Shown one piece after another: positions 1-30,191 of a stretch of 64,000 nt of DNA. A model generated the notes under the pieces. That model worked only from the letters and a program-made list of their open reading frames with translations, searched no databases and had not been told where the DNA came from. A program made the position numbers and the translations under genes. The stretch's first letter is position 1, and every line of letters begins with the position of its first letter. The stretch is from an uncultured Acidobacteriota bacterium (lineage in GTDB: Bacteria; Acidobacteriota; Thermoanaerobaculia; Gp7-AA8): NCBI GenBank assembly GCA_937870635.1, contig CALMZP010000091.1, positions 1 to 64,000 of the forward strand, written 5' to 3'.

Positions 1-1280
1 GGGTCTTGGGAGCGTTTACCTCGGCCGTGAATGCGACGATCGCCGGGCTTCGAGCGACGCAGTCCTTCCTCGAGAACCAGTTCGCCGGTCTGCGCGCGCA
101 GATTACCTGCTACATCAACCAGATCGCGGATCTCGCCAACCAGGTGGCCAACTGGGCCAACACGATCGCGCAGTTCGTCAACGATGCGATCACGGCCACG
201 GGGAATCTCTTCACCCAGATCGGCAACCTCGTCACGCAGATCGGGACCACGTTCGCGAACCTGTACACGGGCATCAGCACGGCGATCACCGGATTTTTCA
301 ATGAGCTCATCGCGCTCGTGCCGACGACGCCGCAGGCGGCGTTCGCACTGCTGACGGGGATCGATCTCTCCGACACATCGTGGATCGATACGCTCGTCGC
401 TCGATTCCCCGTTCTCGAGGCGCCGTGTCCCGATATCGGCGCGGACGCCGGGCCGCTCGGCATCGTGGGGACGCTGGCCGCGGCACAGAAGTCGGACGGC
501 TTTGCCAAGCTCACCAAGATTTTCTACGACGCCGCGCCGAAGGATGTGGCGGGGATGAAGATCAAGCTGGCGATCGCCGCCATCTATCATCCCGCGGAGT
601 ACTGGAATCTCTGCGCGCGAAGCCGCTACGCGATCTCGGAGTGGGACAAGGAAACTGCCCACCGCGCGCTGCTGACGGGCAATCTCAACGTACCGCTCTC
701 GACGCGTGGCACGCTCGTCAGCGGCCGAGCGCTCAGCGCTTCGGTGAGCGAAGTCGACCATGATGTCGCCTTCGCGGCCGGCAAGCTCGATCTGCTCGCT
801 CCGAAGAGCGACGAGCTGCTCCGCCGGCTCGACGCGCCACTCTCAACGAGAGTGAGGCAGACAAGCGTCGACACGCTGCGCGGCACTCTCGGCAACATCG
901 ACCAGAACGTTGCGGTGGTGGAGTCAAAGCTGGATGTTCTGCAGAGCAACGTCCGGCTGAAGGCGCGGCACCAGAGCGAGCGTCAGGTGATGCTCGCCGC
1001 CTTCGAAGAGCTGATGACACGCCTCAGCGTCGAGGACAACCTGCTCGCCGGCAACGTCAATGTGGTCTCGACGTATCAGCTTCCCGAAGCGTTCGGCGGC
1101 CAGCTCGGCCTGGTTCGGTCGATCGTCGAGAAGACGATCGCGGCGATGCTCGCGGCCGGACAGAGCGCGAACAACGCGCAGCGCGAGCTCGAGATCGGGA
1201 ACGCGCTCGTCCCGGTCGGCGACTTCGGGGGCGCATTCAAACAGTTCCGCAAAGCCTATGGCGAAGCGGTCAAACCGTAG
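1..1280 (+). CDS. 5'-truncated secreted tandem paralogue, copy 1
   Basis: The reading frame is open to the left window edge, so the N-terminus lies outside; the first internal start (a TTG at position 6) is not believable as the true start because the paralogue at 1295 has about 225 more residues upstream of the aligned point. What remains: a hydrophobic, Asn/Gln-rich helical stretch (about residues 1-100), a conserved block containing LGIVGTLAAAQKSDGFAKL, a coiled-coil-like segment (SELLRRLD..., VESKLDVLQSNV) and a C-terminal helical hairpin ending in GAFKQFRKAYGEAVKP. I do not recognise a named family. Copy 2 begins 14 nt downstream in the same direction. Role unknown; a secreted or cell-surface protein is inferred from copies 2 and 3. 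Confidence 0.85.
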   Translation, partial: VLGAFTSAVNATIAGLRATQSFLENQFAGLRAQITCYINQIADLANQVANWANTIAQFVNDAITATGNLFTQIGNLVTQIGTTFANLYTGISTAITGFFNELIALVPTTPQAAFALLTGIDLSDTSWIDTLVARFPVLEAPCPDIGADAGPLGIVGTLAAAQKSDGFAKLTKIFYDAAPKDVAGMKIKLAIAAIYHPAEYWNLCARSRYAISEWDKETAHRALLTGNLNVPLSTRGTLVSGRALSASVSEVDHDVAFAAGKLDLLAPKSDELLRRLDAPLSTRVRQTSVDTLRGTLGNIDQNVAVVESKLDVLQSNVRLKARHQSERQVMLAAFEELMTRLSVEDNLLAGNVNVVSTYQLPEAFGGQLGLVRSIVEKTIAAMLAAGQSANNAQRELEIGNALVPVGDFGGAFKQFRKAYGEAVKP

Positions 1281-1294
1281 GAAGCGAGGCGAAG

Positions 1295-3232
1295 ATGAAA
1301 TCACACTCCATTCTCTCGATCCGCCTCGTTGCCGGGCTATGGCTGATGGCCATCGCCGCCGGCGCTGCCTCCGCCTCGGAGCAGGCCGCGTGTGCCCGGA
1401 CCGAGCTGCTGCGCTTCACGGAAGATTTCAGGTCTGTCGTGGGAGTCGATCCTGCGACGGTTGACGAGGCGCGACGCGCGCTCGAGGCCGCTCCTGACGA
1501 GATCATCGTCCCGCTCCATGCCTCGCTGTCGCCGATTCAGGGCTGGCAGCAGATGCCGGGGGTCGTCGCGGAGGTGTCACGCCAGATCGAGGCGCAACAG
1601 TCGGCGCGCGTACAGCGCGCCGTGGATCAGGCAATCAACGGACCCGATGACAGCCCCGAGCGGCTGCGCGGCGACCTCTTGATGTTCGTGACGATGCTGC
1701 GCGCGTTCACGCCGGTCGCCGGCGCGGAGCTGGCTCGACATCTCGATTTCGTGGAGCAGCGTGTTCGCATCGCCACGCCCGGGGAGCTTCGTCAGATCCG
1801 GGCAATCTTCTCCGAGCAGGTGACCGCGTTCCGGAACAATCTGCAGAATCTGACGACCGCCGGTACAGCGCATGGCGCCGGGCTGCGGCCCGTGACGACG
1901 GCTGAGCCGTGCGACAGCATCTGCTCGGACGACCCATTCGGAATCTGCGACGCGATCTGCAATGCCGTCGTATCGGGCTTCAACGCCATCAGTAACGGCA
2001 TCCAGAGCGCGATCAATGGTCTCAACTCGACCATCGCCACACTGCAGAACGAGGTCAATGGATACGTCAACCAGGTGGTGGCGCTCACCGGGCAGATCCA
2101 GGGATTCGTCAATACGGTGGGGAGTTTCGTCACCTCCGCGATCGCCGCGGTGGACAACCTCTTCAGCCAGATCGGCACCGTCCTCTCCGGCCTCGGGACG
2201 ACATTCTCGAACCTCTTCACGCAGATCGGAACGGTTCTGACGGGCTTCTTCACCGAGTTGATCGCGCTGGTTCCCACCACGCCGGAACAGGCTTTCAATC
2301 TCCTCACCGGGATCCAGCTGACGAGCACGGCGTGGGTGGACACGCTGCTCGCGCGATTCCCCGTGCTGGAGGCGCCGTGTCCCGAGTTCGGCACCGACGC
2401 CGGTCCACTGGGGATCGTGGGCACGCTCGCGGCCGCGCAGAAATCGGACGGCTTCGCGAAGCTGACGAAGATTTTCTACGAGGCTGCTCCGTCCGACGTG
2501 GCCGGGATCAAGATCAAGCTGGCGACGGCCGCCATCTATCATCCGGCGGAGTACTGGAACCTCTGCGCGCGCAGCCGGTATGCGATTGCCCAGCACGATC
2601 TGGAATCGGCACACCGGAGTCATCTCGCCGCGAACCTCGACGTTCCGCTGTCCACGCGCGGCTCGCTCGCAAGCGGCGGAGCGCTGAGCGCGGCGGTGAC
2701 GAACGTCGACCAGGATGTGGCGTTCGCGGCAGGGAAGCTCGACCTGCTCGCCCCGAAGAGCGACGAGCTTCTGCGCCGGCTCGATGCCCGTCTGTCCACG
2801 AGAGTGAAGCAGACGAGCGTCGACGACTGGCGCGGCACGTTGCGCAACATCGATCGGAAAGTGGCGGCAGTAGAGTCGAAGCTCGACGTTCTTCAGACCA
2901 ATGTCCGGCAGGAAGCCGCGAACGAACTTGATTTCCAGCGTGGCGTGGAGGAGTTCGAGACGCTCATGACGCGTCTGGCCATCGAGGACAACCTGCTGCC
3001 GGGCAATCCGAATGCAGTCTCGCTGTTTCAGCTGCCGGAGTCCTTCGGCGGCCAGCTGACGCTCGTTCGGTCGATCGTGGAGGAAACCATCGCCGCGATG
3101 ACCGCGGCGGGCCAGACAACGTACAACGCACAGCGCGAGCTGGAGCGCGGCAGCGCCATGATCCCGCTGGGAGACTTTGCTGGGGCGTTCAGACAGTACC
3201 GCAAGGCATACGGCGACGCGGTCAAGCCATAG
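1295..3232 (+). CDS. Secreted tandem paralogue, copy 2 (full length)
   Basis: 645 residues beginning with a Sec signal peptide (MKSHSILSIRLVAGLWLMA, cleavage near ASA/S at about 26). Residues 27-195 are predicted helical; a four-cysteine cluster CDSICSDDPFGICDAIC lies at 206-222; 225-330 is an amphipathic stretch with internal repeats (LFSQIGTVLSG, LFTQIGTVLTG); then the conserved LGIVGTLAAAQKSDGFAKL block, a coiled-coil-like region (about 470-545) and a C-terminal hairpin ending FRQYRKAYGDAVKP. It aligns by eye along almost the whole of copy 1, with long identical runs, so the two are recent tandem duplicates. A purine-rich GAGGCGAAG precedes the ATG. No enzymatic motif is visible; a structural or self-assembling envelope protein is one inference, unproven. 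Confidence 0.9.
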   Translation: MKSHSILSIRLVAGLWLMAIAAGAASASEQAACARTELLRFTEDFRSVVGVDPATVDEARRALEAAPDEIIVPLHASLSPIQGWQQMPGVVAEVSRQIEAQQSARVQRAVDQAINGPDDSPERLRGDLLMFVTMLRAFTPVAGAELARHLDFVEQRVRIATPGELRQIRAIFSEQVTAFRNNLQNLTTAGTAHGAGLRPVTTAEPCDSICSDDPFGICDAICNAVVSGFNAISNGIQSAINGLNSTIATLQNEVNGYVNQVVALTGQIQGFVNTVGSFVTSAIAAVDNLFSQIGTVLSGLGTTFSNLFTQIGTVLTGFFTELIALVPTTPEQAFNLLTGIQLTSTAWVDTLLARFPVLEAPCPEFGTDAGPLGIVGTLAAAQKSDGFAKLTKIFYEAAPSDVAGIKIKLATAAIYHPAEYWNLCARSRYAIAQHDLESAHRSHLAANLDVPLSTRGSLASGGALSAAVTNVDQDVAFAAGKLDLLAPKSDELLRRLDARLSTRVKQTSVDDWRGTLRNIDRKVAAVESKLDVLQTNVRQEAANELDFQRGVEEFETLMTRLAIEDNLLPGNPNAVSLFQLPESFGGQLTLVRSIVEETIAAMTAAGQTTYNAQRELERGSAMIPLGDFAGAFRQYRKAYGDAVKP

Positions 3233-3248
3233 GAAGGACGGCACAATC

Positions 3249-4949
3249 GTGAATACGACTCGGATGCATCTCATGTTCGTCGCGGTTCTGTTCCTCTCGG
3301 TAGGAGCGTTTGCGCAGGAGAAGCTGGATGACCCGGAGCGGTTCCGGGGCGATCTCCGCGTTTATGTCCAGGATCTCTCGCGGCTTTCGCCGGCCGTCGT
3401 CGACCGCGTGTACAAGAAGGAATTCTCGCTGGCGGAGGCCGAAGCGACGATCGAGTCGCTCACGCATGAGGAGTTGCGCCTCATGGAGCAGAACCTCCGC
3501 CTCGTCCCGTTCTGGCGCGAGGTTCCGCAGATGCTCGCGGAAAAATCGCTTTCTGACCCCGCGCTGCAGCAGGCCGCGGCGCCGGCACCGTCGCCGGTCG
3601 CGATCGACGTCGAAGTCTTGCGCAGGCCGATGATGTCTTTCGTCGGATCGCTCCGCTCGATGCCGAAGGATCTGGTGAGCGAGGAGTATCAACGCAGGCT
3701 CGACCGCATCGAAGCGACGCTCGCTCAGCTGGATGCCGCGCAGCTCGTGGAACTGCAGGCCGCGCTCAACGAGCGGATGCCGGCCTGGATCGAGGCGACC
3801 AACAGGCGCGATGCCACCAAGCTCGGGACGGAGGCGCAGGCCAGCTGCACCGGCAGCTTCCCGGCCAACATCCTGTGCGAGCTGAACGCGGTGTTTGCCG
3901 AGATCGCGGCCATTCCGAACAAGGTCGCGACGTTTGCTACCGACGCCGTGAACTTCATCGGAAACGAGCTCAAGAAACTGTTCGAGACCATCAAGGACGC
4001 CATCCCGACCACTCCCCAGGGCGTGATGTCGCTCATCGGCCTCGGCAGCTCCGCTTATACCAGCGTGGTCAGCGGGCTTCCCACGATCGATCCACCGTGC
4101 CCATCGTCGGTTCCCGGAATTGGAACCGTCGGCGACATCCGCGCCATGTACGTCTGCCAGCGCGGCCCCGAATTCCTCGGCCGCGCCCTCTTCAACATCT
4201 TCCCGAAGGACCTGTGGGGAATGAAACCGAAGATCGCCGCGGGCCTGTTCTACTTTCCATGGACGTACCTTTGCGGGACGTGTTTCGGAGGGACCTACGA
4301 GCGAAACGAGGCGCAGGCATCCATCGCGCACCGCAACCTGCTCACGTCGAACCTGAATGCGGTCGCCTCTTCGCTCGTCGATCAGGCCACGGTCAACGAG
4401 GTTCAGGCGAAGGTCACGAACGTTGACGCGGATGTGGCCGTCGTCGAGGCCAAGCTGGATGTCCTCACGACGAAGACGAACGAGCAGCTGAATCGTCTCG
4501 ATGTCGAAGTCACGACGCGTGCGAGCGAGGTGAGTGTGGATGGCGGCCGCGCGGAGGCGCTCGGCGTTCTGGAGGGTGTGGAGATGACGATCTCGAAACT
4601 CGACGTCATCGATCACGAAGTCGTCGCATTGATCGCTGAGCAGAACGAGACCGCCTCGTCGCTGGAGCGGTTCCGCAAACTCGCGGTGCGCCAGCGCATC
4701 GAGGATGACCTGATTCGCAATCCGACCACGGACCGGATTGGTCTTTTCGAGACGCCTCAGGCCCAAGGTGGATTCCTCGAAATGGCGATCGCGATCGTCG
4801 AGGAAACGCTCGCCAATCGACGTGCCGCGGGGGTCGACATGGCGAGCGCAGGCAGAGACTTGCAGGTGGCGCAGGCCGACTACGGCAGAGGGGCGTTCAA
4901 GAGCGCCTACACGTCGTTGCGCAAGGCGTATCAGAGCGCCGTCAAGTAA
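3249..4949 (+). CDS. Secreted tandem paralogue, copy 3 (divergent)
   Basis: 566 residues from a GTG start that follows AGGAAGG; an in-frame ATG five codons later (position 3264) is an equally good start. The signal peptide is MHLMFVAVLFLSVGAFA/QEK. It is the divergent member: the N-terminal helical domain matches copy 2 (DDPERFRGDLRVYVQDLSRL resembles DSPERLRGDLLMFVTMLRAF), the long amphipathic repeat region is much shorter, and the CPSSVPGIGTVGDIRAM block replaces the LGIVGTLAAAQ block. The coiled-coil (VDADVAVVEAKLDVLTTKTN) and the C-terminal hairpin ending AYTSLRKAYQSAVK are retained. Its TAA stop shares one base with the ATG of the HEAT lipoprotein, implying translational coupling. Confidence 0.88.
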   Translation: MNTTRMHLMFVAVLFLSVGAFAQEKLDDPERFRGDLRVYVQDLSRLSPAVVDRVYKKEFSLAEAEATIESLTHEELRLMEQNLRLVPFWREVPQMLAEKSLSDPALQQAAAPAPSPVAIDVEVLRRPMMSFVGSLRSMPKDLVSEEYQRRLDRIEATLAQLDAAQLVELQAALNERMPAWIEATNRRDATKLGTEAQASCTGSFPANILCELNAVFAEIAAIPNKVATFATDAVNFIGNELKKLFETIKDAIPTTPQGVMSLIGLGSSAYTSVVSGLPTIDPPCPSSVPGIGTVGDIRAMYVCQRGPEFLGRALFNIFPKDLWGMKPKIAAGLFYFPWTYLCGTCFGGTYERNEAQASIAHRNLLTSNLNAVASSLVDQATVNEVQAKVTNVDADVAVVEAKLDVLTTKTNEQLNRLDVEVTTRASEVSVDGGRAEALGVLEGVEMTISKLDVIDHEVVALIAEQNETASSLERFRKLAVRQRIEDDLIRNPTTDRIGLFETPQAQGGFLEMAIAIVEETLANRRAAGVDMASAGRDLQVAQADYGRGAFKSAYTSLRKAYQSAVK

Positions 4950-5785
4950 TGGCGATGCGACGAACCGCGCCTCTGGCAGCGCTGCTCATGACGGTGGCCG
5001 GCTGTTCCATACAGCCGGCAGCTCCCGTCGCAGCGCCTCCGCCGGCTTCCGTCGATGCGCTGGTTCGTCAGCTGGAACAGGAAGAGACGAGGGCGGATGC
5101 GCGGAACGATCTGGTCGCTCTCGGAGCGCAAGGCGTGCCCGCTCTGCTCGCTCACACGAGACACCGCTCCGCGGTCGTTCGCTGGGAGCTTGCCAACGTT
5201 CTCGGTCCCGTCGCCGATGCGCGCGCATTGCCGGCGCTCGTCTCCAACGCGACGGCCGACGAGAATCCGCATGTACGCTGGCGGTCGCTGTGGGCGCTAT
5301 CCCACTTCGAGGCTCAGTCCGTGGCGGAAGCTCTGCGGGAGCAACTCCGGCAGGAAGATGAGCCGACACGATGGAACGCGGCCGTTGCCCTTTCGTTCTT
5401 CAACATCGCGGATGGTCTCGATCTGATCCACTCCGGTGTGCGGAATCCCGACGCGTGGCGGCGTTGGGAAGCAATCAACGCGCTTGGCCGGATCCATGAC
5501 GAGTCGAGCCCGGACATTCTCGCTCAGGCGGTGCGCTCGCCGGCGCTGGGCGATCGAACGGAGGCGGTTCTCTCGCTCGGCGTGATCGGGGGGCCGAAAG
5601 CTTCGGCATTGCTCGTCGGAGCGCTCGAGGATCCGGCTTCGGACGTCCGCTGGCGCGCCTGCATGGCCCTCGGCCGCATCGGTGATCCGGCGACCGTCCC
5701 GGCCCTTCAAGCGCTCGACGCCGTCGAGCGTGATCCGCAGGTGCGAGAACAGTTGCGGCTGGCGCTGGCAAAGCTCGCGCGGTAG
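4949..5785 (+). CDS. HEAT-repeat lipoprotein
   Basis: 278 residues. The N-terminal signal ends in a lipobox (LLMTVAGC, Cys at about 19), so it is probably a lipid-anchored periplasmic or outer-membrane protein. The mature part is made of about six HEAT/PBS-lyase-type repeats of roughly 30 residues, e.g. RHRSAVVRWELANVLGPV, ENPHVRWRSLWALSHF, SDVRWRACMALGRIGDP. Such repeats form alpha-solenoid protein-binding surfaces; no catalytic residues are expected. The start codon overlaps the stop of the third tandem paralogue by one base, so it is very likely made together with the secreted paralogues and may bind or present them (inference). Confidence 0.88.
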   Translation: MAMRRTAPLAALLMTVAGCSIQPAAPVAAPPPASVDALVRQLEQEETRADARNDLVALGAQGVPALLAHTRHRSAVVRWELANVLGPVADARALPALVSNATADENPHVRWRSLWALSHFEAQSVAEALREQLRQEDEPTRWNAAVALSFFNIADGLDLIHSGVRNPDAWRRWEAINALGRIHDESSPDILAQAVRSPALGDRTEAVLSLGVIGGPKASALLVGALEDPASDVRWRACMALGRIGDPATVPALQALDAVERDPQVREQLRLALAKLAR

Positions 5786-5887: not shown

Positions 5888-8794
5888 ATGAGAGTGACGC
5901 CCGGCACACGCATGGGGCGGTACGAAATTCGCGCGCTCCTCGGGTCGGGAGGGATGGGGGAGGTTTACCGCGCATACGACCGCGACCTCGATCGCGAGGT
6001 CGCTGTCAAAGTCCTGCACGCCGCGGGAGAGGATGCGGACCGTCTGCGGCGATTCGTACAGGAGGCGAAGGCCGCCTCCGCCCTCCATCACCCGAACGTC
6101 GCCCACGTTTACGAGATCGGGTCGCATGAGGACGTGCGCTTCATCGCGATGGAGATCGTCGAGGGAGAAACGCTGCGGCATCGGATCCACGCAGGGCCAC
6201 TGGCGGTCGAGGACGTGATCGACATCGTCACGCAGATCGCCGGCGCGCTGGCTGCCGCCCACAAGAGCGGCATCGTTCACCGCGACATCAAGCCGGAGAA
6301 CGTGATCATCACGCCCGATGGTCACGTGAAGGTCCTCGACTTCGGGCTGGCGAAACTCCGGCAGCTCCGTGGGGCCGATTCCGCGACCATGCTCAAGACG
6401 GCGACCGGCGTGGCGATGGGAACACTCGGCTACATGGCGCCCGAGCAGTTCTTCGACAGCGACGTCACCCCTGCGGCCGACGTCTTTTCGCTCGGCGTGG
6501 TTCTCTACGAGATGGTCGCGGGGAAACGTCCGTTCGACTCGGGTGACACTCCGCGCGACCTGACCGCGGTCCGCCCGGAAGTGTCGCCGAAGCTCGCCGC
6601 GCTCGTCGCGAAGTCGCTGGAGAGGGATCCCGCGCGGCGTCCCGATGACGCGTCGGTGATTCATGAAGAGCTCAGGGAGATCAGCCGGCGCGTGAACGTG
6701 TCACCCGCCGTCGCGAAATCCCGCACTCCCGCCGCCGTCGCGGTGATCTTTGGCGTCGTTCTTCTCGTCGGCATCGGAGGATGGTGGTTTCGTGAGCAGG
6801 GGAGACGACGTGATGCCCTCCGGCAGGCCGACGTGGCGGAGACATTATTGAAGGACAGGAAATACGCCGAGGCGTATGAGCGGGCGGCAGCGGCGGCGAT
6901 GGTGCTTCCGGAGGACGAGCGTCTTCGCGACATCATTCCTCGTGCCGCCGGCCGGCTCACCCTCGAGAGCGTGCCCGCGGGTGCGGCGGTCTTTCTTCAA
7001 CGGTTCAAGGGACCATCTCAACGCGTGCGTGTTGGGCAGACGCCGCTCACGATCCCGCGCGTTCCGCGGACCGATTACCTGCTGACGCTCGAGAAGCCTG
7101 GTTACGCCACGGTCACCCGGGCGCTGTCGCTCACTCCGTTCTATCACGGCGGCGAAGCCCTTCTGGAAGATGCGCAGCAGGTCCGGGTCAGGCTCGTTGA
7201 AGCATCGAAAGTCCCGCCGGGAATGGTGTTTGTCGAGGGAGGGGCGTACCGCCTTTCCGGGTTTCAGCGGCCGAGCGACCGGCTGGTCGAGCTCCGCGAC
7301 TTCTTCATCGACGATCACGAGGTGACGAATCGTGAATACGCGGAGTTCATCCGCGATGGAGGGTATCGCCGCGCGGAATTCTGGAAGCATCCCTTCGTCG
7401 ACGGAGGGCGAAAGCTGACATTCGACGAGGCCGCAGTGCGGTTTCGCGACACGACGGGGCTGCCTGGACCGCGAAGCTGGAGCGGCGGTGCGGCGCCGGA
7501 CGGGCTCGAGGATCATCCTGTCATCGGAGTGACCTGGTACGAGGCCGCGGCGTACGCGGAGTGGAAGGGGAAGAAGCTTCCGACCGTGTATCAGTGGGAA
7601 CGGGCGGCGCGCTATCCCGTCGAGGAGACGGCGGCGAGCTCGTTCCCCTGGGGCAATTACTCCGAAGCGATCGACGTGGGCGAACGCGCGAACTTTCTCG
7701 GTAAGGGTACCCTGCCGGCTGATGCACTGCCGTTCGGCGTCAGCGGGTGGGGAGCGAAGCACATGGCGGGAAACGTTGCGGAGTGGTGCCGGAACGCGCG
7801 TCCGCCGGGATTCACCGTGCGCGGCGGCGCGTGGAACGATGCGGTGTATTCGTTTGGACAGACGGGCGCCTTTCCGGGGTTCTATTCGGCGCCCACGGTG
7901 GGATTCCGATGCGTCGCGGGGGGAGGGGGCGACGAAGGCGACTTCGCATTGATCACCTCGAATTTCGTTCCCGTGCTGCAACCTGCGGACGATGCGGCAT
8001 ACGAGCGTTATCGTGCGCGTTACGACTATCCGAAAACGCCGCTGCAGGCGCGAATCGTCGAAACGATCGATGCGGCCGACTGGACGCGGGAGAAGATCCA
8101 CTACATCGTCGGCGGCAAAACCGTTCCCGCTTATCTTTATCTGCCGAAGCGGATCGCCCGTCCGCTGCAGGTCATCCATTTTGCTCCCGCCGGAGATGTG
8201 ACTGTCGGGTATCGCACGCTGCCGGACAGTCTGGAGGCCCAGCTCGCGGCTCTGATCCGCGGAGGGCGGGCTGTCTTCGCGGTGGAGCAGGAAGGTTTTC
8301 TCGGCAGGCCGCGACCGGCGGGCTGGGTTCGTCCCGATGTGGCCGAGGAAGAGTGGGTGGATCTGAACGTCGAGCGCGTCACCGAGTTGCGCCGCGGCCT
8401 CGATTATCTCGAGTCACGCCCCGACATCGATCGCACGAGGATCGCTTTTCTCGGCATCAGCGCGGGCGGTGGCCCGGGAGTGTTTGCTACCGCGCTCGAA
8501 TCACGGTATCGGTCCGTGATCTTTGCCGGAACCGGAATCTCCAGGCGCGACCTGGCGACGGCAGCGCCTGCGAATCGAATCCATTTCGTTCCGCGGATCC
8601 GCGCGCCGAAGATGATGCTGCAGGGGCGGTACGACGAAGACACGGCGCTGGTGAGCGAGGCCGAACCGATGTTCAAACTGATGATCGAGCCGAAGCGGCT
8701 CGTGGTGTACGAAGGCGGCCATGTTCCGCCGCAGGAAGTCGCCGTCCCGGCGTTCATCCGATGGCTGGACGAGACGATGGGTCCGCCGGGATAG
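5888..8794 (+). CDS. Four-module Ser/Thr kinase: kinase-TM-PEGA-FGE-like-alpha/beta hydrolase
   Basis: 968 residues from the ATG; the longer open frame upstream has no start signal. Modules: Hanks kinase 12-265 (GSGGMGEVY loop, VAVKVL lysine, HRDIKPEN, LDFGLAKL), a transmembrane helix at about 282-302, a PEGA domain at about 357-420 (LTLESVPAGAAV), a sulfatase-modifying-factor/FGE fold at about 445-675 (GMVFVEGGAYRL, DHEVTNREYAEF, FTVRGGAWND, VGFRCVAG) and a C-terminal alpha/beta hydrolase resembling S9-type dipeptidyl peptidases with a probable triad S858 (GISAGGG), D916 (GRYDEDT) and H945 (EGGHVPP). The FGE domain lacks the paired active-site cysteines of true formylglycine-generating enzymes, so it is probably a ligand-binding fold. 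The hydrolase would face outside, the kinase inside. Confidence 0.93.
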   Translation: MRVTPGTRMGRYEIRALLGSGGMGEVYRAYDRDLDREVAVKVLHAAGEDADRLRRFVQEAKAASALHHPNVAHVYEIGSHEDVRFIAMEIVEGETLRHRIHAGPLAVEDVIDIVTQIAGALAAAHKSGIVHRDIKPENVIITPDGHVKVLDFGLAKLRQLRGADSATMLKTATGVAMGTLGYMAPEQFFDSDVTPAADVFSLGVVLYEMVAGKRPFDSGDTPRDLTAVRPEVSPKLAALVAKSLERDPARRPDDASVIHEELREISRRVNVSPAVAKSRTPAAVAVIFGVVLLVGIGGWWFREQGRRRDALRQADVAETLLKDRKYAEAYERAAAAAMVLPEDERLRDIIPRAAGRLTLESVPAGAAVFLQRFKGPSQRVRVGQTPLTIPRVPRTDYLLTLEKPGYATVTRALSLTPFYHGGEALLEDAQQVRVRLVEASKVPPGMVFVEGGAYRLSGFQRPSDRLVELRDFFIDDHEVTNREYAEFIRDGGYRRAEFWKHPFVDGGRKLTFDEAAVRFRDTTGLPGPRSWSGGAAPDGLEDHPVIGVTWYEAAAYAEWKGKKLPTVYQWERAARYPVEETAASSFPWGNYSEAIDVGERANFLGKGTLPADALPFGVSGWGAKHMAGNVAEWCRNARPPGFTVRGGAWNDAVYSFGQTGAFPGFYSAPTVGFRCVAGGGGDEGDFALITSNFVPVLQPADDAAYERYRARYDYPKTPLQARIVETIDAADWTREKIHYIVGGKTVPAYLYLPKRIARPLQVIHFAPAGDVTVGYRTLPDSLEAQLAALIRGGRAVFAVEQEGFLGRPRPAGWVRPDVAEEEWVDLNVERVTELRRGLDYLESRPDIDRTRIAFLGISAGGGPGVFATALESRYRSVIFAGTGISRRDLATAAPANRIHFVPRIRAPKMMLQGRYDEDTALVSEAEPMFKLMIEPKRLVVYEGGHVPPQEVAVPAFIRWLDETMGPPG

Positions 8795-8838: not shown

Positions 8839-10524
8839 CTAAGCCGGCTGGCCCCAGAAGTAGCCCTGGCCGAACTCGACTCCGAGGTCCCGAACGAGCT
8901 CGAGGTCATCGGCGGTCTCGATTCCTTCGGCCACGACCTGACATCCCAGGGTGCGCGCTACGTTCACGTAGCGCCGGAGGTTGTCGGCCTTCGATCGGTC
9001 ATTGCTGATTCCCATCACGCAGCGCTTGTCGATCTTGATCAGGTCCGGCTCGAGCATGACCAGGCTCTCGAGGCAGCTGCTGCCGAAGCCGACGTCATCG
9101 ATGGCGATGAGAAGCCCGGCCGCCCGCAGCGTTTTCACGATCTCGGTCAGATACGACGGATCTCCGATGATCTGCTGCTCGCTGATCTCGAGGCAGAACT
9201 GCTCGGCCGGCAGGGGTGAAGGAAAGACCTCGAGCAGATGCTCGACTGGCACGCCGAGGAGCGTGGTCGGAAAGATGTTGACGTGGAATCGGGCGTAGGG
9301 CGGCAGGAGCATCGCCGCTTCGACCGACTTGCGCAGGCACACGTGGTCGACGATGGTCAGGACGTTCCGCTCCGAGCACATGCGGAAGAAGTTGTCGGGA
9401 ACTTCGTACACGCCGTTCGAATAGCGCGAGAGGAACTCGTAGCCCACGGGACTCTCGTCATCGAGCCGGAAGATCGGCTGCTTCACGGTCACGACGTAGT
9501 TGCCGTGCGTGAGGTTCGTGCACATGTCGGCCTGCGCGAGAAGACGCTTGTCCGTGTCGTCGAATCCGGCCGACTGAAACGTCACGCGGTTCTTTCCTCC
9601 GGCCTTCGCACGCGACAGCATCAGGTTTGCGCGTGAGAGAAGCTGATCGACCGCAGGCATGTAGGCCGTCAGCATCATCGATGCGATCGATGCCGTGAGC
9701 GTGACCATGCCGGTGCTGTGCTGAATGACCGAGGTGGCGATGCGCAGGCGGATGCGCTCGGCGATCCGCGCGACCTGTTCGGGGTCGGTCTCCGGAAGGA
9801 CGATCATGAACTCGTCGCCTCCGACGCGGCCGACGTAGTCGATGCCTCGGACCGTGGCGCGGAGACGGCGGGCCATCTCCTTCAGGACGACATCGCCCAC
9901 GGCGTGGCCGAGGGCTCTGTTGATGACGGCGAAGTCATCGAGATCGACGACGAGAACGGCTGCGGCTTTGAGTCCCGCGTTGAGGTGCCTGACCTCGCGT
10001 GATACGGCCTGCTGGAGGCCGCGGCGGTTCAGCAGCTCCGTGAGCGGGTCGATCAGGGTCAGGCGCTCCAGGTCGCGGTTCGCGAGCTCGAGCTGCTGCG
10101 TCATGTGCGCGAGATCGCGAACGCTGCGGTGGCGCTCGATCGCGTAGCGGATGGAGCGCGACAGCGACTCGAAGTTCATCGACCCCTTCAGCAGGTAATC
10201 CTCGGCACCGCAGCGAAGAGCGTCGGTGGCGAGCGTTTCGTCGGCGCTCCCGGTGAGGACGATGACGGGGACCTCGCGCAGCCTGCTGTCGAGTGCGCTC
10301 AGCGCTTCGAGCTCGGCGGCGTCGGGAAGGTTGAGATCGAGAATGATCACGTCCGGCTGGTATTCATCCACGGCTTCGCACGCCGCGGCAGCGGTATTGA
10401 CGTGATGAATGTCGTATCGCGGCGTGTCGCAACTGCGGAGCAGATTCCGGATCGCGTTGGCGGAGCGAAGGTCATCCTCGACGAGAAGGAGGCGCGTCGT
10501 ACGTGTGTGTGCAAGAACAGTCAC
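8839..10524 (-). CDS. Response regulator with GGDEF and EAL domains
   Basis: 561 residues. REC domain 1-125 with acidic pocket VEDD and phosphoacceptor D63 (ILDLNLPD); GGDEF domain about 155-320 with an intact GGDEF at 235-239 and an RxxD inhibitory site at 226-229 (RGID) exactly five residues before it; EAL-type domain from about 340 to the end. In the EAL domain the signature is YEFLSR (glutamate kept, alanine replaced), the loop-6 motif is DDVGFGSS rather than DDFGTGYSS, and AEGIET is intact. The cyclase half therefore looks active and product-inhibited; phosphodiesterase activity is possible but the EAL domain is somewhat degenerate. No sensor kinase gene is adjacent. Confidence 0.92.
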   Translation of the reverse strand: MTVLAHTRTTRLLLVEDDLRSANAIRNLLRSCDTPRYDIHHVNTAAAACEAVDEYQPDVIILDLNLPDAAELEALSALDSRLREVPVIVLTGSADETLATDALRCGAEDYLLKGSMNFESLSRSIRYAIERHRSVRDLAHMTQQLELANRDLERLTLIDPLTELLNRRGLQQAVSREVRHLNAGLKAAAVLVVDLDDFAVINRALGHAVGDVVLKEMARRLRATVRGIDYVGRVGGDEFMIVLPETDPEQVARIAERIRLRIATSVIQHSTGMVTLTASIASMMLTAYMPAVDQLLSRANLMLSRAKAGGKNRVTFQSAGFDDTDKRLLAQADMCTNLTHGNYVVTVKQPIFRLDDESPVGYEFLSRYSNGVYEVPDNFFRMCSERNVLTIVDHVCLRKSVEAAMLLPPYARFHVNIFPTTLLGVPVEHLLEVFPSPLPAEQFCLEISEQQIIGDPSYLTEIVKTLRAAGLLIAIDDVGFGSSCLESLVMLEPDLIKIDKRCVMGISNDRSKADNLRRYVNVARTLGCQVVAEGIETADDLELVRDLGVEFGQGYFWGQPA

Positions 10525-10604
10525 GTAGATACGAATAAGACCTCGCCGGACGTCGCAGCCGTGACGGGAATCACGAAGTCTCCGGCGTCACGACGGGCTC
10601 ATCC

Positions 10605-10745
10605 ATGACGCGAATCGGCGGTGATCCCCGCGAAAAGGGAGTATGGTGGATGTCCGCCGGGGAACCTTCCTCGCCCTTCAGACCTCTGAGCTAAGTCAGA
10701 CGCCCTGAATCCTTCCTCTTAGCCAACTGGCGAATCTGAAGGAGA
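10605..10745 (+). other. Possible structured leader upstream of PH-like/GlsB pair
   Basis: The 227-bp spacer between the divergent genes at 10524 and 10752 contains two alternative stems that cannot form together: GGCGG (10617-10621) with CCGCC (10654-10658), and CCCCG (10626-10630) with CGGGG (10658-10662). It also holds a two-copy motif (GCTAAGTCAGACGCCCTGAAT and AGCCAACTGGCGAAT). It ends in the GAAGGAG ribosome site. It does not match any riboswitch class I can recall confidently. Confidence 0.25.
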
Positions 10746-10751
10746 ACAGCC

Positions 10752-11162
10752 GTGGTCTACGTCCTTTACGCAGCGGTCGCAATCATCCTCGTGCTGCTGG
10801 CGCGCAGCCTCTACAAGCGCCTCGCGTCGGACAGCATCGTCGCGTTCACCGACAAGCGCCGCCCCACGTCGCTCCTGGTCAGCCGTGGAGAGCTCGTGGA
10901 TGGCAACCGCCATCTGAACGTCGCGCTCTCGCTCACAGAGTCCATGCTGATTTACGAGAACCCTGATTTCGAAGGAAGTCTGGACCGCACCACGATCCAC
11001 GAGGTCGAGTACGAGAACGAGCTTGCCACCGGCCAGCCGGTCTACGACGGCAAGGTGATGCGTCTTCGATGCTTCAGCAAGACCTTCGAGTTCGTGATTC
11101 CGGCGAACGAAATGCGCCAGTGGGAATCGGTCATGCCTGCTCACCGGATGGGCGCGTCATAG
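10752..11162 (+). CDS. Membrane-anchored PH-like small protein
   Basis: 136 residues from a GTG preceded by GAAGGAGA at optimal spacing. One N-terminal transmembrane helix (VLYAAVAIILVLLARSLY), then a soluble beta-rich domain of about 100 residues (LNVALSLTESMLIYENPDFEGSLDR ... LRCFSKTFEFVIPANEM) that reads like a PH/GRAM-type sandwich exposed to the cytoplasm. I do not recognise a named family. Ten bases separate it from the GlsB/YeaQ-type gene, so the two are probably cotranscribed, suggesting a shared envelope-stress or membrane role (inference). Confidence 0.75.
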   Translation: MVYVLYAAVAIILVLLARSLYKRLASDSIVAFTDKRRPTSLLVSRGELVDGNRHLNVALSLTESMLIYENPDFEGSLDRTTIHEVEYENELATGQPVYDGKVMRLRCFSKTFEFVIPANEMRQWESVMPAHRMGAS

Positions 11163-11171
11163 GGGGAGAGA

Positions 11172-11459
11172 ATGTCGTATCTGTTCATCGTCGTCATTGG
11201 AGCGGTCGCAGGCTGGATCGCCGGGCAGTACATCAAAGGCAGTGAGATGGGAATGTTGCCGGACATCATCGCCGGCGCGGTGGGGGCCTGTGCGCTGGTG
11301 CTCTTTGCCCGCGTGATCGGGATCTCCGCGGCAACGGGTTTCTTCATGAGCTTCGTCGTCGCCATCATCGGCGGCGCCGCGACGCTCTACGCGATGCGGT
11401 TCGCGATGAAGGAGAAGCCGGTCGTCGTGACGAGACCGCGCAGACGGCCGACCAGGTAA
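11172..11459 (+). CDS. GlsB/YeaQ/YmgE-family stress membrane protein
   Basis: 95 residues, three hydrophobic segments with the small-residue pattern of the transglycosylase-associated/YeaQ family (VVIGAVAGWIAGQYIKG, GMLPDIIAGAVGA, GFFMSFVVAIIGGAATLYA) and a basic tail RPRRRPTR. The family is associated with general stress responses; its biochemical role is not settled. GGGGGAGAG provides a ribosome site before the ATG. It follows the PH-like gene by 10 nt and ends 33 bp before a CGTCATCC-type palindrome that separates it from the convergent lipoprotein gene. Confidence 0.85.
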   Translation: MSYLFIVVIGAVAGWIAGQYIKGSEMGMLPDIIAGAVGACALVLFARVIGISAATGFFMSFVVAIIGGAATLYAMRFAMKEKPVVVTRPRRRPTR

Positions 11460-11491
11460 CGAGCACCACTTGCGCCTGCGACAAACGTGTC

Positions 11492-11591
11492 ACGTCATCC
11501 TCAACCGGCGAAGCGCGGTGAAGGATCTCAAAATGCGAAACTTTGGCATCTTGAGATCCTTCGGCGTCTCACAGCCTCTCAGGATGACGTG
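11492..11591. repeat. Long imperfect palindrome of the CGTCATCC family
   Basis: Left arm ACGTCATCCTCA...AAGGATCTCAA, right arm TTGAGATCCTT...CTCAGGATGACGT. It lies between convergent genes and could act as a bidirectional terminator or REP-like element. Related copies lie at 25658-25752 and 61105-61195. Confidence 0.8.
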
Positions 11592-11596
11592 GCCAC

Positions 11597-12109
11597 CTAC
11601 AGTTTGCCGAGGATCACGTGGGCGATGGCGGTCGTCTCGCCTTTGCGCGTGGCGGCGTCGCCCGTGCCGCCCATGACCTGGACGCTGATGGGCGTCGAAC
11701 CTTTCTGTGCGACGAGAGTGCCGGTCGGGAACTGGCCGGTCTTCCCGTCGATGTAGAAGGCTTTCTCACCAACTGCGGTCACCTCTTCGGCAGTCGCTCC
11801 GTACTGACCCTCGAACGCGCTGCGCGCGGAGTCGTAAGCCGATGCGTATGGGTAGACCTGCACGATCACGCTGCGTCCGCTGGCGGTCCATGTGCATACG
11901 TCCGCTCCGCCACTCTTCGAGGACTGTCCGCTCGCCTCGGTCAGTCCGGCGGCGGTCTTCAACTCATCCATCGTGAGCATCCCGCAGACATCGCGCTCCG
12001 CCGGGGCCGTGGCGGTCGACGGCGCGGGCGCGGACGTGTCGGTGGAGCTTTCCTGCTGGCAACCCGCGGTGAGAACGAGGAGAACGACAAGTGCTGCACG
12101 AAGGGCCAT
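11597..12109 (-). CDS. DUF3558-like lipoprotein
   Basis: 170 residues. Lipoprotein signal MALRAALVVLLVLTAGC with Cys at 17, an acidic/Thr-Pro-Ala linker (about 20-40), then a compact domain starting RDVCGMLTMDELKTAAGL and containing a second cysteine (DVCTWTAS) that could pair with the first. The pattern 'CGML...ELKTAAGL...C.W' resembles the DUF3558 group of secreted small-molecule or peptide-binding-like lipoproteins; assignment is by pattern only. AGGAGG stands five bases before the ATG, a leadered gene unlike many others here. Monocistronic; convergent with the GlsB-type gene. Confidence 0.8.
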   Translation of the reverse strand: MALRAALVVLLVLTAGCQQESSTDTSAPAPSTATAPAERDVCGMLTMDELKTAAGLTEASGQSSKSGGADVCTWTASGRSVIVQVYPYASAYDSARSAFEGQYGATAEEVTAVGEKAFYIDGKTGQFPTGTLVAQKGSTPISVQVMGGTGDAATRKGETTAIAHVILGKL

Positions 12110-12239
12110 TCGATTCCTCCTGAGTGTTTCTCTGCTGAACGGCCTGCATGATACGGGCCTGAGTGCACCGTAAACCCGGTGTCCATCGTCACTGCGCCGG
12201 CCCCTGCCCTTCCTTCACAGTCCCGGGAAAGGAGTGAGC

Positions 12240-13415
12240 ATGGGACTGCATACGAAGGCCATTCACGCCGGGCTCCAGCCCGAGAAACACCACGGGGCGG
12301 TGTCGGTGCCGATTTATCAGAGCTCGACGTTCGCGTTTCCTTCCGCCGAGGAGGGGGCGGCTCGTTTTGCGGGGGACTCCGAGGGGCCGATCTACACGCG
12401 CCTCGGAAATCCGACGGTGCAGGCGCTCGAAGAAGCGGTCGCGGAGCTCGAGAACGGGCGGGGCGCCGTGGCCACCGCGACCGGCATGGCCGCGGTCAGC
12501 GCGGTCTTTCTGGCGATGCTCAATCAGGGTGATCACATCGTGAGCACGGCGCCGATCTACGGCGCTACGCGCAAGCTGATCGAAGACCGCCTGGCACGGC
12601 TCGGCGTCTCTTCGACGTTCGTTCCCGCAATCGAAGGTCCGGAAGCGATCAGGAGCGCCATTCGTCCGCGGACGCGCCTCATCTACATCGAGACGCCGGC
12701 GAATCCGACGCTCGACCTGGTCGACATCGAAGGCGCAGCGGGGATCGGAAAGATTCCGCTCGTGGTCGACAACACGTTCGCGGGGCCGCATCTGCAGCGA
12801 CCGCTCGACCTGGGCGCCGACGTTGTGCTGCACTCGATGACGAAGTCTCTCAATGGCCACAGCGATGTCGTCGCGGGCGTAGTCGTAGCGTCCGATCCGG
12901 CGATCATTCGTTCGGTGCGCGAAGCGGCGATCGCGTGGGGCCTGACCATGGATCCGCACCAGGCGTGGCTGGTGCTGCGGGGCATCCGCACGCTGGGTAT
13001 GCGCGTCGAGCGCGCGCAGGCGAATGCGATCGAGATCGCGCAGTGGCTGGAAGGGCATCCGCTGATCGAATGGGTGAGCTATCCCGGGCTGCCGTCGCAC
13101 CGGCAGTACGACCTGGCGAAAAAGCAGATGTCCGGCCCGGGCTCGGTGCTGGCGTTCGAGCTGCGCGGCGGCATCGAGGCGGGGCGCGTCCTCATGAACA
13201 ACGTCCGCGTGATCACGCTGGCGGTGTCGCTCGGCGGCGTCGAGTCTCTGATCGAGCATCCGGCGTCGATGACGCACAAGGAGAATGTCACTCCCGGCCT
13301 GGTGCGGCTGTCGGTGGGCTGCGAGGACGTCGACGACCTGAGGGCTGATCTCGCCCAGGCGCTGGAGATGGTGGCTCAGGCGCGCGCAAAGGCCGCGTCC
13401 CTGGATGGTCGTTAG
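12240..13415 (+). CDS. PLP-dependent trans-sulfuration enzyme (cystathionine gamma-synthase / methionine gamma-lyase type)
   Basis: 391 residues from the ATG at 12240, chosen over the GTG at 12234 because AAAGGAG lies five bases before the ATG. Fold-type I Cys/Met metabolism PLP enzyme: YTRLGNPT substrate/PLP loop, ATGMAAVSAVF, YIETPANPT, DNTFAGPHLQ, and the Schiff-base lysine K202 in HSMTKSLNGHSD. C-terminal LVRLSVGCEDVDDLRADL is typical. The subgroup cannot be fixed from motifs alone: candidates are cystathionine gamma-synthase, cystathionine gamma-lyase and methionine gamma-lyase. It stands alone between a lipoprotein and a membrane protein, both on the opposite strand. Confidence 0.9.
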   Translation: MGLHTKAIHAGLQPEKHHGAVSVPIYQSSTFAFPSAEEGAARFAGDSEGPIYTRLGNPTVQALEEAVAELENGRGAVATATGMAAVSAVFLAMLNQGDHIVSTAPIYGATRKLIEDRLARLGVSSTFVPAIEGPEAIRSAIRPRTRLIYIETPANPTLDLVDIEGAAGIGKIPLVVDNTFAGPHLQRPLDLGADVVLHSMTKSLNGHSDVVAGVVVASDPAIIRSVREAAIAWGLTMDPHQAWLVLRGIRTLGMRVERAQANAIEIAQWLEGHPLIEWVSYPGLPSHRQYDLAKKQMSGPGSVLAFELRGGIEAGRVLMNNVRVITLAVSLGGVESLIEHPASMTHKENVTPGLVRLSVGCEDVDDLRADLAQALEMVAQARAKAASLDGR

Positions 13416-25766: not shown

Positions 25767-25797
25767 GGTTAACGGTCAACGGTTAACGGTCAACGGC
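25767..25797. repeat. Heptamer tandem array, GGTTAAC word (right arm)
   Basis: GGTTAAC GGTCAAC GGTTAAC GGTCAAC GG, four units with period 7; reverse-complementary to the array at 25518-25587. Ends six bases before the BlaI -35 box. Confidence 0.9.
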
Positions 25798-25802
25798 CCC
25801 CC

Positions 25803-25845
25803 TTGACAACGACTACAGTTGTAATCCATATTGCTTACAGTTGTA
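25803..25845 (+). promoter_or_regulatory. BlaI-type promoter with two operator dyads
   Basis: -35 TTGACA (25803-25808) and -10 CATATT (25827-25832), 18-bp spacing. Two identical TACAGTTGTA dyads at 25814-25823 and 25836-25845, start to start 22 bp (two helical turns). The first lies between -35 and -10, the second over the expected transcription start. This matches the TACA/TGTA operator core of BlaI/MecI repressors and implies autorepression. Confidence 0.88.
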
Positions 25846-25859
25846 GGCAAGGAGACGAC

Positions 25860-26234
25860 ATGGCGCGGCCACCACAGATCTCGGGCGCTGAATGGGAAGT
25901 GATGAAGGTCCTCTGGGAAGCTTCGCCGCTCACCGGGTCGGAAGTCGCCGAGCGCATCGGCGGGCACCCCAAGACCGTCAAGACACTCCTCGGCCGCCTC
26001 GTCCGCAAGGGCGCACTCCGCTACACGGAAGAGGGGAACCGGTACCTCTACCGGCCCACCCTGGCGCGTGAGAAATATGTGGCCGAGGAGTCGAAGTCGT
26101 TTCTGCGGCGGGTGTTCGGGGGAGAGGCCACACCCGCTCTCGTCCACTTTGTGGAAACAGTCGACCTCAGCGAAGAGGAGATCCAGGAACTCCGCGAGCT
26201 TCTCGACCGTAGAGCGAAGGGAGAGAAATCATGA
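25860..26234 (+). CDS. blaI: BlaI/MecI-family transcriptional repressor
   Basis: 124 residues; ATG chosen because AAGGAG lies five bases upstream and the operators precede it. N-terminal winged helix (ISGAEWEVMKVLWEASPLTG, PKTVKTLLGRLVRKGALR) and the C-terminal helical dimerisation region (SFLRRVFGGEATPALVHFVE ... EIQELRELLDRR), as in BlaI/MecI. It should repress its own promoter and the M56 gene that overlaps it by four bases (ATGA). Family knowledge: the repressor is inactivated by proteolysis linked to its M56 partner; an HF pair in ALVHFVE may be the counterpart of the known cleavage site (inference). No beta-lactamase gene is adjacent. Confidence 0.92.
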   Translation: MARPPQISGAEWEVMKVLWEASPLTGSEVAERIGGHPKTVKTLLGRLVRKGALRYTEEGNRYLYRPTLAREKYVAEESKSFLRRVFGGEATPALVHFVETVDLSEEEIQELRELLDRRAKGEKS

Positions 26235-27769
26235 CGACCACTTCGCTCGTGCTCTGGCTGTTCGATACGACGATGAAGGGATCGCTCATGATCCTGCTCG
26301 TCGCCTCCCTTCAGTGGATGATCGGCTCGCGCGTCGACGCGCGATGGCGGCATCTGCTTTGGGTCGTCGTTCTTCTGCGCCTCGTCATCCCGCAGACGCC
26401 GGCATCGAGGCTGAGTCTCTTCAATTTATTGCCGGCCGCCGAGCCGATTGCGTTCGCCGCTCGCGCCGTCCTCGTGGAAGCTCCGCCACCGCCGGTTTTG
26501 ATGGCCACCGCCGAGCGGCAAGTGGTCGCCGTCACGCCGGCGCCGATCCCCGCAGCGCTGCGCTGGGCATTCTGGATCTGGCTTGCCGGCGTGCTCTTCT
26601 TCGGGCTCCGAATCGTGGTCGCATCGATTCATGCGCGGCGGGCCGTCGCGTCCGGGCGGCGCAGCGAATCGTCCGGCCCGCTGCCCATCGTCGAATGCGA
26701 CCTCGTGCGCGCCCCGGCGCTGCACGGCCTCTTCCGCCCGGTGCTCCTTCTGCCGCGCGGATTCCTGACCTCATTCACGTCCGAGGAGTTGCGGCATGTG
26801 GTGCTGCATGAGACGTGGCATCTGAAGCGGATGGATGTCGCGGTGAGCTGGCTGCTCGCCGCGGCGCAGTCGATCCACTGGTTCAATCCCCTGGTGTGGT
26901 TCGCCGCTTCGCGGATCCGCGAGGAGCGGGAACTCTCCTGTGACGAGCTGGCGCTCTCCTTACTCGAGGAGGAAGAGCGCACGGGCTACGGCAGGACGAT
27001 TCTCAAGCTGCTCGAACGGTTCCGTCCCGTGGCACCGGTCCCGGCGCTCGTTGGGATCGTCAATCAGAAACAGAAGATGAAAAGGAGACTCACGATGATC
27101 GCTTCGTTCCGAAACGGAACCCGCTTCACAACGCTTTTCCTCACTCTCGTCGCCGCGGTCGGCATTGCCGGCCTCACCGACGCCCAGGGCACCCGCCGCA
27201 TCATGAAGAAGCTCGACCCCGCGTCGGTCGAGAACGTCGAGCGCCTTCACCAGCGCGTTTCGTTCGAGCTTACCGACGCGTCGTTCGGCGACCTGCTGAA
27301 TGCGGTCGGCAACAAGATCGGCGCGACGGTGCTGCAGTCGCCCGCGATTGCCACCTCCGCGATTCAGAACGCGCGGTTCACGCTCAAGGCCGACAACGTC
27401 CCCGCGCACGCCCTGCTCATGGAAGCCCTGATGCCGTTCGAGCTGAGTGTCGAGCCGACGGAGTCGGGTATCACGATCAGTGACGAGCCGCCGGCGCGAC
27501 GCATTTTCGTGCACGGCTCCGAGGGTCACGCAGAAGAACATGTGATCGTGACCAACGGTGACAAGCGGGAAATGAAGCGCATGATCAAGATCGAGGGAAA
27601 GCCCGCTGTCGATGGCGAAGTCGAGGAGCGGATCATCGTCAACAAGATCAAGGGCGAGGGCCACGGCTCGTTCGATGATGCCGGCAAGCTGCGCCGCGAG
27701 CTGACGTTGAACCTCGACGAGAACGGCGTGAAGAGCGAAGGCAAGCTCACGATCGAGATCACGAAGTAA
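26231..27769 (+). CDS. M56 (BlaR1-like) membrane metalloprotease with STN-like tail
   Basis: 512 residues, start overlapping the BlaI stop by four bases. N-terminal membrane helices (SLMILLVASLQWMI, LLWVVVLLRLVIP, LRWAFWIWLAGVLFF), then the zinc protease motif HETWH (VVLHETWHLKRMD, about residue 193) with the downstream ligand region RELSCDELAL. A further helix follows (FTTLFLTLVAAVGIAGLT, about 300-318), then an extracytoplasmic region that is not a penicillin-binding sensor: residues 340-415 look like an STN/secretin-type fold (VSFELTDASFGDLLNAVGNK ... ARFTLKADNVPAHALLMEAL), followed by a charged tail. It probably senses a signal other than beta-lactams and relieves BlaI repression. Confidence 0.88.
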   Translation: MTTTSLVLWLFDTTMKGSLMILLVASLQWMIGSRVDARWRHLLWVVVLLRLVIPQTPASRLSLFNLLPAAEPIAFAARAVLVEAPPPPVLMATAERQVVAVTPAPIPAALRWAFWIWLAGVLFFGLRIVVASIHARRAVASGRRSESSGPLPIVECDLVRAPALHGLFRPVLLLPRGFLTSFTSEELRHVVLHETWHLKRMDVAVSWLLAAAQSIHWFNPLVWFAASRIREERELSCDELALSLLEEEERTGYGRTILKLLERFRPVAPVPALVGIVNQKQKMKRRLTMIASFRNGTRFTTLFLTLVAAVGIAGLTDAQGTRRIMKKLDPASVENVERLHQRVSFELTDASFGDLLNAVGNKIGATVLQSPAIATSAIQNARFTLKADNVPAHALLMEALMPFELSVEPTESGITISDEPPARRIFVHGSEGHAEEHVIVTNGDKREMKRMIKIEGKPAVDGEVEERIIVNKIKGEGHGSFDDAGKLRRELTLNLDENGVKSEGKLTIEITK

Positions 27770-29953: not shown

Positions 29954-30179
29954 GGGCGTAGCAGAAGGAAAAGGAGGATCGCCGCGCGGCCGATCGCATG
30001 TGGCCGCACGACGTTCCCGGCGGGAGGCTTTGCGACGTCGAAGAGATGCCGGAGGCGATACGCGTCGGGGAACCGGTCCACGGGGTTGACCGTCGGCGCG
30101 CACGTCGAATCCGCGACGGCGATGAAGATGATCGCGAGGAGCGCCAGAAGGCGGCCGAACGTGGTGGGGAGCGTGGCGT
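29954..30179. other. Spacer with a start-less hydrophobic minus-strand frame
   Basis: No plus-strand gene. On the minus strand a frame of about 85 codons reads LLALLAIIFIAVADSTCAPT ... PVDRFPDAYRLRHLFDV ... AAILLFLLLRPYLPN and then stops, but no ATG, GTG or TTG precedes its first helix. It could be a decayed small membrane gene. Confidence 0.25.
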
Positions 30180-30185
30180 TATTCT
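30180..30185 (+). promoter_or_regulatory. -10 TATTCT of the DUF2207 gene
   Basis: TATTCT six nt before the ATG at 30192; leaderless candidate. Confidence 0.45.
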
Positions 30186-30191
30186 AATTCC

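What the first reader, a model, noticed from the sequence alone, without database searches (positions are those of the whole stretch)
1..5785. Tandem array of large secreted paralogues coupled to a HEAT lipoprotein
Three consecutive exported proteins of one unrecognised family, two of them nearly identical over long stretches, are followed without a gap by a lipid-anchored alpha-solenoid. Their layout (helical head, Cys cluster, amphipathic repeat, coiled coil, C-terminal hairpin) looks structural rather than enzymatic. One possibility is a self-assembling extracellular fibre or sheath with the HEAT lipoprotein as anchor or chaperone. This is the best candidate in the window for an undescribed gene system.
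Basis: partly seen in the sequence, partly recalled or inferred. Interest (0 to 1): 0.65.

Follow-up and report, generated by a model that had tools for sequence, protein, structure and literature searches.

The report
Tandem secreted coiled-coil protein family
A soil-type Acidobacteriota genome carries a tandem run of secreted, rod-like proteins belonging to a patchily distributed, undescribed Acidobacteriota family that has been duplicated side by side again and again; they are probably extracellular structural or adhesive proteins, and the neighbouring HEAT gene is not a conserved partner.

Summary
The observation mostly holds. Window 3-5782 encodes three exported paralogues (first cut by the contig edge) followed, with stop and start overlapping (TAATG), by a HEAT-repeat lipoprotein. 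Copies 1 and 2 are 67% identical (72% in DNA), not nearly identical; copy 3 is about 30%. The same genome holds a second tandem pair on another contig, without a HEAT gene. A profile of the C-terminal domain finds relatives scattered through several Acidobacteriota classes. They share a signal peptide, variable helical head, Cys-containing loops, an amphipathic or hydrophobic middle, a coiled-coil stalk (clear 11-residue repeats in some) and a conserved ~90-residue C-terminal domain ending in one TPR-like hairpin. No Pfam, NCBIfam or PDB family matches beyond TPR. In several genomes tandem copies are each other's closest relatives: repeated independent duplication. In one lineage the genes sit beside giant DUF11/BACON/Kelch extracellular proteins, in another beside a propeller-type two-component system. 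The HEAT gene lies next to none of the other members. Best reading: an uncharacterised family of oligomeric extracellular rod proteins, structural or adhesive. The "HEAT-coupled system" is not supported. A multi-component alpha-helical pore former remains a weaker, unexcluded rival. Fold prediction was too poor, except for the C-terminal domain, to decide.

The parts
3..1280 (+). copy 1 (C-terminal 425 codons; 5' end cut by the contig edge, N-terminal part probably at the end of contig C71)
1295..3232 (+). copy 2, complete, 645 aa: signal peptide, helical head (~35-200), Cys cluster (206-222), amphipathic helix (~225-325), PCP...LC domain (~327-430), coiled-coil stalk (~460-560), C-terminal domain (~557-645)
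3249..4949 (+). copy 3, complete, ~566 aa (GTG start; ATG possible a few codons later), most divergent copy
2963..3229 (+). conserved C-terminal domain of copy 2 (the family-defining ~90 residues ending in a TPR-like hairpin)
4949..5785 (+). HEAT-repeat lipoprotein, start overlaps stop of copy 3 (TAATG); not conserved with the family elsewhere

Best explanation
The three genes encode Sec-exported, probably disulfide-containing, mostly helical rod proteins of an undescribed Acidobacteriota family. Shown: signal peptides, shared architecture, patchy distribution, repeated tandem duplication, tight operon-like spacing. Inferred: after export the amphipathic and coiled-coil segments make the proteins oligomerise (paralogues probably co-assemble or replace one another), projecting the variable head; the conserved C-terminal three-helix/TPR-like domain caps the rod or docks it to a partner on the cell surface. 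The assemblies act outside the cytoplasm as structural or adhesive elements. In this genome the HEAT lipoprotein is probably co-translated and may serve as a local envelope-bound helper, but it is not a conserved part.
For: Signal peptides detected on nearly all complete members. Conserved C-terminal domain in genomes of at least three classes. 11-residue repeats with 56-64% lag-11 identity in G014, G007 and G462 members, heptad-like lag in G394. All-helical prediction of copy 2 with long helices (low confidence); C-terminal domain predicted with pLDDT 79-88 and matching consensus TPR sequences. Neighbours in lineage f80 are giant DUF11, BACON, He_PIG, HYR, Kelch and SBBP extracellular proteins at all six loci with usable flanks; a G009 remnant abuts a beta-helix/Calx-beta protein with an IPTL-CTERM-like tail. 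Tandem copies pair as sisters in the tree for C91 copies 1/2, C33, G459, G408, and group together for G609/G602. Mostly even Cys counts (2, 4 or 6) after the signal peptide.
Against: No fold, oligomer state or location was tested; AlphaFold confidence outside the C-terminus is low (mean pLDDT 43 and 53). In the window copies themselves the 11-residue repeat is weak. Giant surface-protein neighbours occur in one lineage, plus the G009 remnant; other lineages have regulators or unrelated genes. No outer-membrane anchor was identified.
Confidence: 0.45

Rival explanations
1. A multi-component alpha-helical pore-forming system used against neighbouring cells: two or three secreted paralogues from one operon, each a helical bundle with a central hydrophobic or amphipathic segment that inserts into a target membrane, working like ClyA-family tripartite toxins without being homologous to them.
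For: Order helical region - hydrophobic segment - long helices - C-terminus, exported, 2-3 paralogues in tandem; central hydrophobic stretches with Kyte-Doolittle means of 1.3-2.3 over 19 residues in many members; a very weak NCBIfam NheC match of copy 2, E 0.044. Tripartite alpha-PFTs are three proteins of one operon (PMC6602965).
Against: No Pfam or PDB profile match to any alpha-PFT in 12 scanned members or in two family profiles. Many members are single genes; highly polar NND-type 11-residue stalks and a TPR-like C-terminus are not features of that family as I know it; the window copies reach only ~1.5 on the hydrophobicity scale.
Confidence: 0.12
2. Lipid- or surface-binding proteins: the long amphipathic helix (period ~3.6) binds lipid or envelope surfaces in the manner of apolipoprotein-like amphipathic repeats, and the rest is a spacer.
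For: Strong amphipathic periodicity at 253-318 of copy 2 and 472-560 of the C33 copies; none of 200 shuffles of the chosen segment reached it (the segment was chosen as the best, which inflates this). Sub-threshold hits to apolipoprotein-type models.
Against: The segment is replaced by a different hydrophobic region in short members; matches to phage tape-measure and similar models over the same segment look compositional.
Confidence: 0.15
3. A dedicated two-part system in which the HEAT lipoprotein anchors or chaperones the exported paralogues.
For: Overlapping TAATG junction and tight spacing; lipobox.
Against: HEAT gene absent from the second tandem pair in the same genome and from the flanks of the other family loci examined; no close homologue in the class; the downstream kinase's relatives carry neither.
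Confidence: 0.08

Closest known systems
Tetrabrachion of Staphylothermus marinus (S-layer stalk with 11-residue repeats, right-handed four-helix coiled coil; PMC5744192)
   Same: Exported protein with a stalk predicted from 11-residue repeats in some family members
   Different: Window copies show only a weak 11-residue signal; no beta-rich arms predicted in the window copies; no sequence relation shown; oligomer state unknown
ClyA-family tripartite alpha-pore-forming toxins (Ahl, Smh, Nhe, Hbl; PMC6602965, PMC7979752)
   Same: Tandem exported paralogues, helical, with a central hydrophobic segment
   Different: No profile match; conserved TPR-like C-terminus; polar 11-residue stalks; many single-gene members
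Tetratricopeptide repeat (Pfam TPR clan)
   Same: Last ~30 residues match consensus TPR
   Different: One hairpin only, at the end of a three-helix domain; below Pfam gathering scores
PBS-lyase HEAT-like repeat proteins (HEAT_2, PF13646)
   Same: Window 4949-5782 is a member by clear Pfam score
   Different: Lipobox-bearing, and beside the paralogues only in this genome

Membership tests
ClyA-type (tripartite) alpha-PFT | recognisable sequence or profile similarity to the family | tested here: not met
   no alpha-PFT among Pfam or PDB-sequence matches of the family profiles and members; NheC E 0.044 only, far below cut-off
ClyA-type (tripartite) alpha-PFT | two or three exported components encoded in one operon | tested here: met
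   three tandem copies with 14-16 bp gaps; pairs in other genomes
ClyA-type (tripartite) alpha-PFT | five-helix tail bundle with hydrophobic alpha3-alpha4 head | tested here: inconclusive
   helical prediction, but pLDDT too low; fold search uninformative
ClyA-type (tripartite) alpha-PFT | pore formation | not testable with these tools
   needs a lytic or leakage assay
Right-handed (11-residue) coiled-coil stalk protein | continuous 11-residue repeats | tested here: inconclusive
   clear in G014, G007 and G462 members (lag-11 identity 56-64%), weak in window copies
Right-handed (11-residue) coiled-coil stalk protein | parallel right-handed tetramer | not testable with these tools
   no multimer prediction on hand
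Trimeric autotransporter adhesin | C-terminal beta-barrel (YadA-type) anchor | tested here: not met
   C-terminus is three helices; no YadA anchor in Pfam scans
TPR | 34-residue helix-turn-helix motif with conserved small and aromatic positions | tested here: met
   profile A4 positions 53-82 match consensus TPR, whole-sequence E down to 6e-16 for a many-repeat designed protein, 1e-5 to 1e-7 for shorter ones; a single motif, sub-threshold in Pfam
HEAT_2 / PBS-lyase HEAT | Pfam HEAT repeats above cut-off | tested here: met
   HEAT_2 111.6 bits against a cut-off of 27.7 for window 4949-5782

The most novel reading that the evidence does not exclude
A previously undescribed class of secreted, stalked Acidobacteriota proteins that diversify by recurrent local tandem duplication and assemble, possibly as hetero-oligomers of the paralogues, into extracellular rods or fibres, deployed with lineage-specific giant surface proteins; or, in the stronger version, into a new type of multi-component pore or contact-dependent effector.
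Probability: 0.3. Interest if true: 0.6.

Novelty: new variant of a known kind. Interest (0 to 1): 0.38.

Why it matters
Little seems to be known about the cell surface of soil Acidobacteriota (my general knowledge; literature searches found nothing on this family). This defines an exported family missing from Pfam, NCBIfam and the PDB, with a C-terminal signature that allows annotation, and shows recurrent tandem duplication, a pattern expected of surface proteins under diversifying pressure. It also removes a misleading gene partnership (HEAT).

Tried and rejected
Named-genome scans with copy 2 found nothing and with the C-terminal alignment only two relatives; full alignments had no stretch conserved enough. 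AlphaFold was limited to window and the search for related loci sequences (3-5 rows), so the models are poor and Foldseek was uninformative; VIA-align listed only small three-helix bundles such as 4fzo (Z 7.7, rmsd 1.9, 65 aligned) for the C-terminal domain, no more than a common helical arrangement. Phage tape-measure hits (PHROGs), Baculo_PEP_C and similar are confined mainly to the amphipathic segment and sub-threshold or compositional: rejected. PADLOC: only weak or HEAT-generic hits. Plasmids: no match. No RNA family in the window. Considered and rejected: that the HEAT gene belongs with the downstream kinase instead; relatives of the kinase lack it upstream. Distribution outside Acidobacteriota was not tested.

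Full report
WHAT IS THERE. The window is contig C91 of the held genome from base 1. Frames at 3-1277 (cut), 1295-3229 and 3249-4946 form one family; gaps are 14 and 16 bp. Copy 3 ends TAA and the HEAT gene starts on its last A (TAATG). Copies 1/2 share 67% protein and 71.6% DNA identity, up to 86% in 100-nt blocks, with no exact run of 25 nt; copy 3 is about 30% identical.

ARRAY START. Contig C71 ends inside the N-terminal part (241 codons) of a family member, 32% identical to copy 2 over its head. Its last 33 bp and the first 33 bp of C91 agree at 30 positions; 2000 control placements gave at most 17. The likeliest reading is one gene split by an assembly break at strain variation, which makes copy 1 about as long as copy 2 and the first gene of the array. 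Upstream on C71, on the opposite strand, lie a small protein that looks to me like a sigma factor (no Pfam hit), a putative anti-sigma protein (weak zf-HC2/NrsF hits) and a TPR-CHAT protein.

SECOND CLUSTER. Contig C33 carries two adjacent longer members (L009:7220-9889, 9915-12521) with an extended helical head. The next gene downstream is a solute-binding protein of an ABC transporter; there is no HEAT gene.

THE FAMILY. A C-terminal profile found clear relatives in 3 of 148 other genomes of the class (G014, G009 and the divergent G007; G009 only as a 129-codon remnant), in 6 further genomes among 396 sampled across the phylum, in 16 of 162 of another class and 4 of 41 of a third, one of these weak. 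Recurrent layout: signal peptide; helical head (long in C33 and G459; a different, apparently beta-rich head in G394); a Cys-containing region; amphipathic or hydrophobic middle; coiled-coil region; ~90-residue C-terminal domain 'LxLRxxIExxL...LFxLPxxxGGxLExVRxIVxETI...GxxKxAYxxxRKAY'. Periodicity: lag-11 identity of 56-64% in G014, G007 and G462b members, heptad-like lag 7 in G394a, weak in window copies. The C-terminal hairpin matches consensus TPR sequences and is the only well-predicted part (pLDDT 79-88).

TANDEM DUPLICATION. In a maximum-likelihood tree adjacent copies are sisters: C91 copies 1/2 (100/99, with copy 3 next, 93/79), C33a/b (100/99), G408 pair (99/99), G459 pair (96/97; their physical adjacency is inferred from a second head at the edge of contig C150). 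The G609 and G602 tandem copies form one clade (100/100). So side-by-side duplication happened repeatedly rather than once. C91 and C33 clusters of one genome are not sisters in this tree, but the deep forks are weakly supported.

NEIGHBOURS. All-against-all comparison of flanks: in lineage f80 every usable locus (L106, L107, L108, L109, L113, L114) has a very large exported-looking ORF directly next to the family gene: DUF11, BACON, He_PIG, Kelch, HYR, SBBP proteins; in G609/G602 the pair sits between two such giants. The G009 remnant lies beside a beta-helix/Calx-beta protein with an IPTL-CTERM-like tail. In lineage f37 the neighbours are a Reg_prop histidine kinase and response regulators. 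Around the window there is no such giant. Such giants may be common in these genomes, so the association is suggestive only.

HEAT GENE. A phmmer search with the HEAT lipoprotein in the predicted proteins of the window start and 24 other stretches around family genes found only itself; a class-wide search (148 genomes) at E <= 1e-20 found only itself; flanks of kinase relatives lack both HEAT and the family. The link is local to this genome.

MECHANISM. I favour extracellular rod-like oligomers (0.45), with lipid binding (0.15) and a multi-component pore (0.12) as rivals; the remainder is unassigned. Export and architecture are shown by sequence; oligomerisation, surface location and adhesive or structural function are inferred. 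The 11-residue stalk recalls tetrabrachion (PMC5744192) in how it may work, not in descent. The tripartite pore-former comparison uses PMC6602965; sequence membership was tested and not met, fold membership is inconclusive.

LIMITS. Periodicity statistics were computed on the best-scoring segment, so their shuffle counts are optimistic.

Noticed in passing
window 5888-8791 (+): Ser/Thr kinase fused to PEGA, FGE-sulfatase and an esterase-like C-terminus; 63% identical relative in G007, 55% in G002.
   Followed up: partly
window 8842-10587 (-): Response regulator with GGDEF and EAL domains.
   Followed up: no
window 25773-27766 (+): By eye a BlaI/MecI-like repressor followed by a BlaR1-like membrane protein.
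   Followed up: no
window 30132-32129 (+): Exported-looking protein ending in a Ser/Gly-rich tail (SSGGSRSGGGGGGGW).
   Followed up: no
L064:6984-7315: Five direct repeats of about 36 nt with ~35-nt spacers, apparently a CRISPR array, about 6 kb from the family gene in G459.
   Followed up: partly
L108, L109, L113: Pairs of family genes next to 1400-2560 aa DUF11 / BACON proteins, conserved between genera.
   Followed up: partly
L101, L102, L103: Family gene followed by a cysteine desulfurase (NifS-like by eye) gene in three genomes of lineage f37.
   Followed up: no
L021:4483-4869 (-): A 129-codon C-terminal remnant of the family in G009, apparently decayed, beside a beta-helix/Calx-beta protein.
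   Followed up: partly
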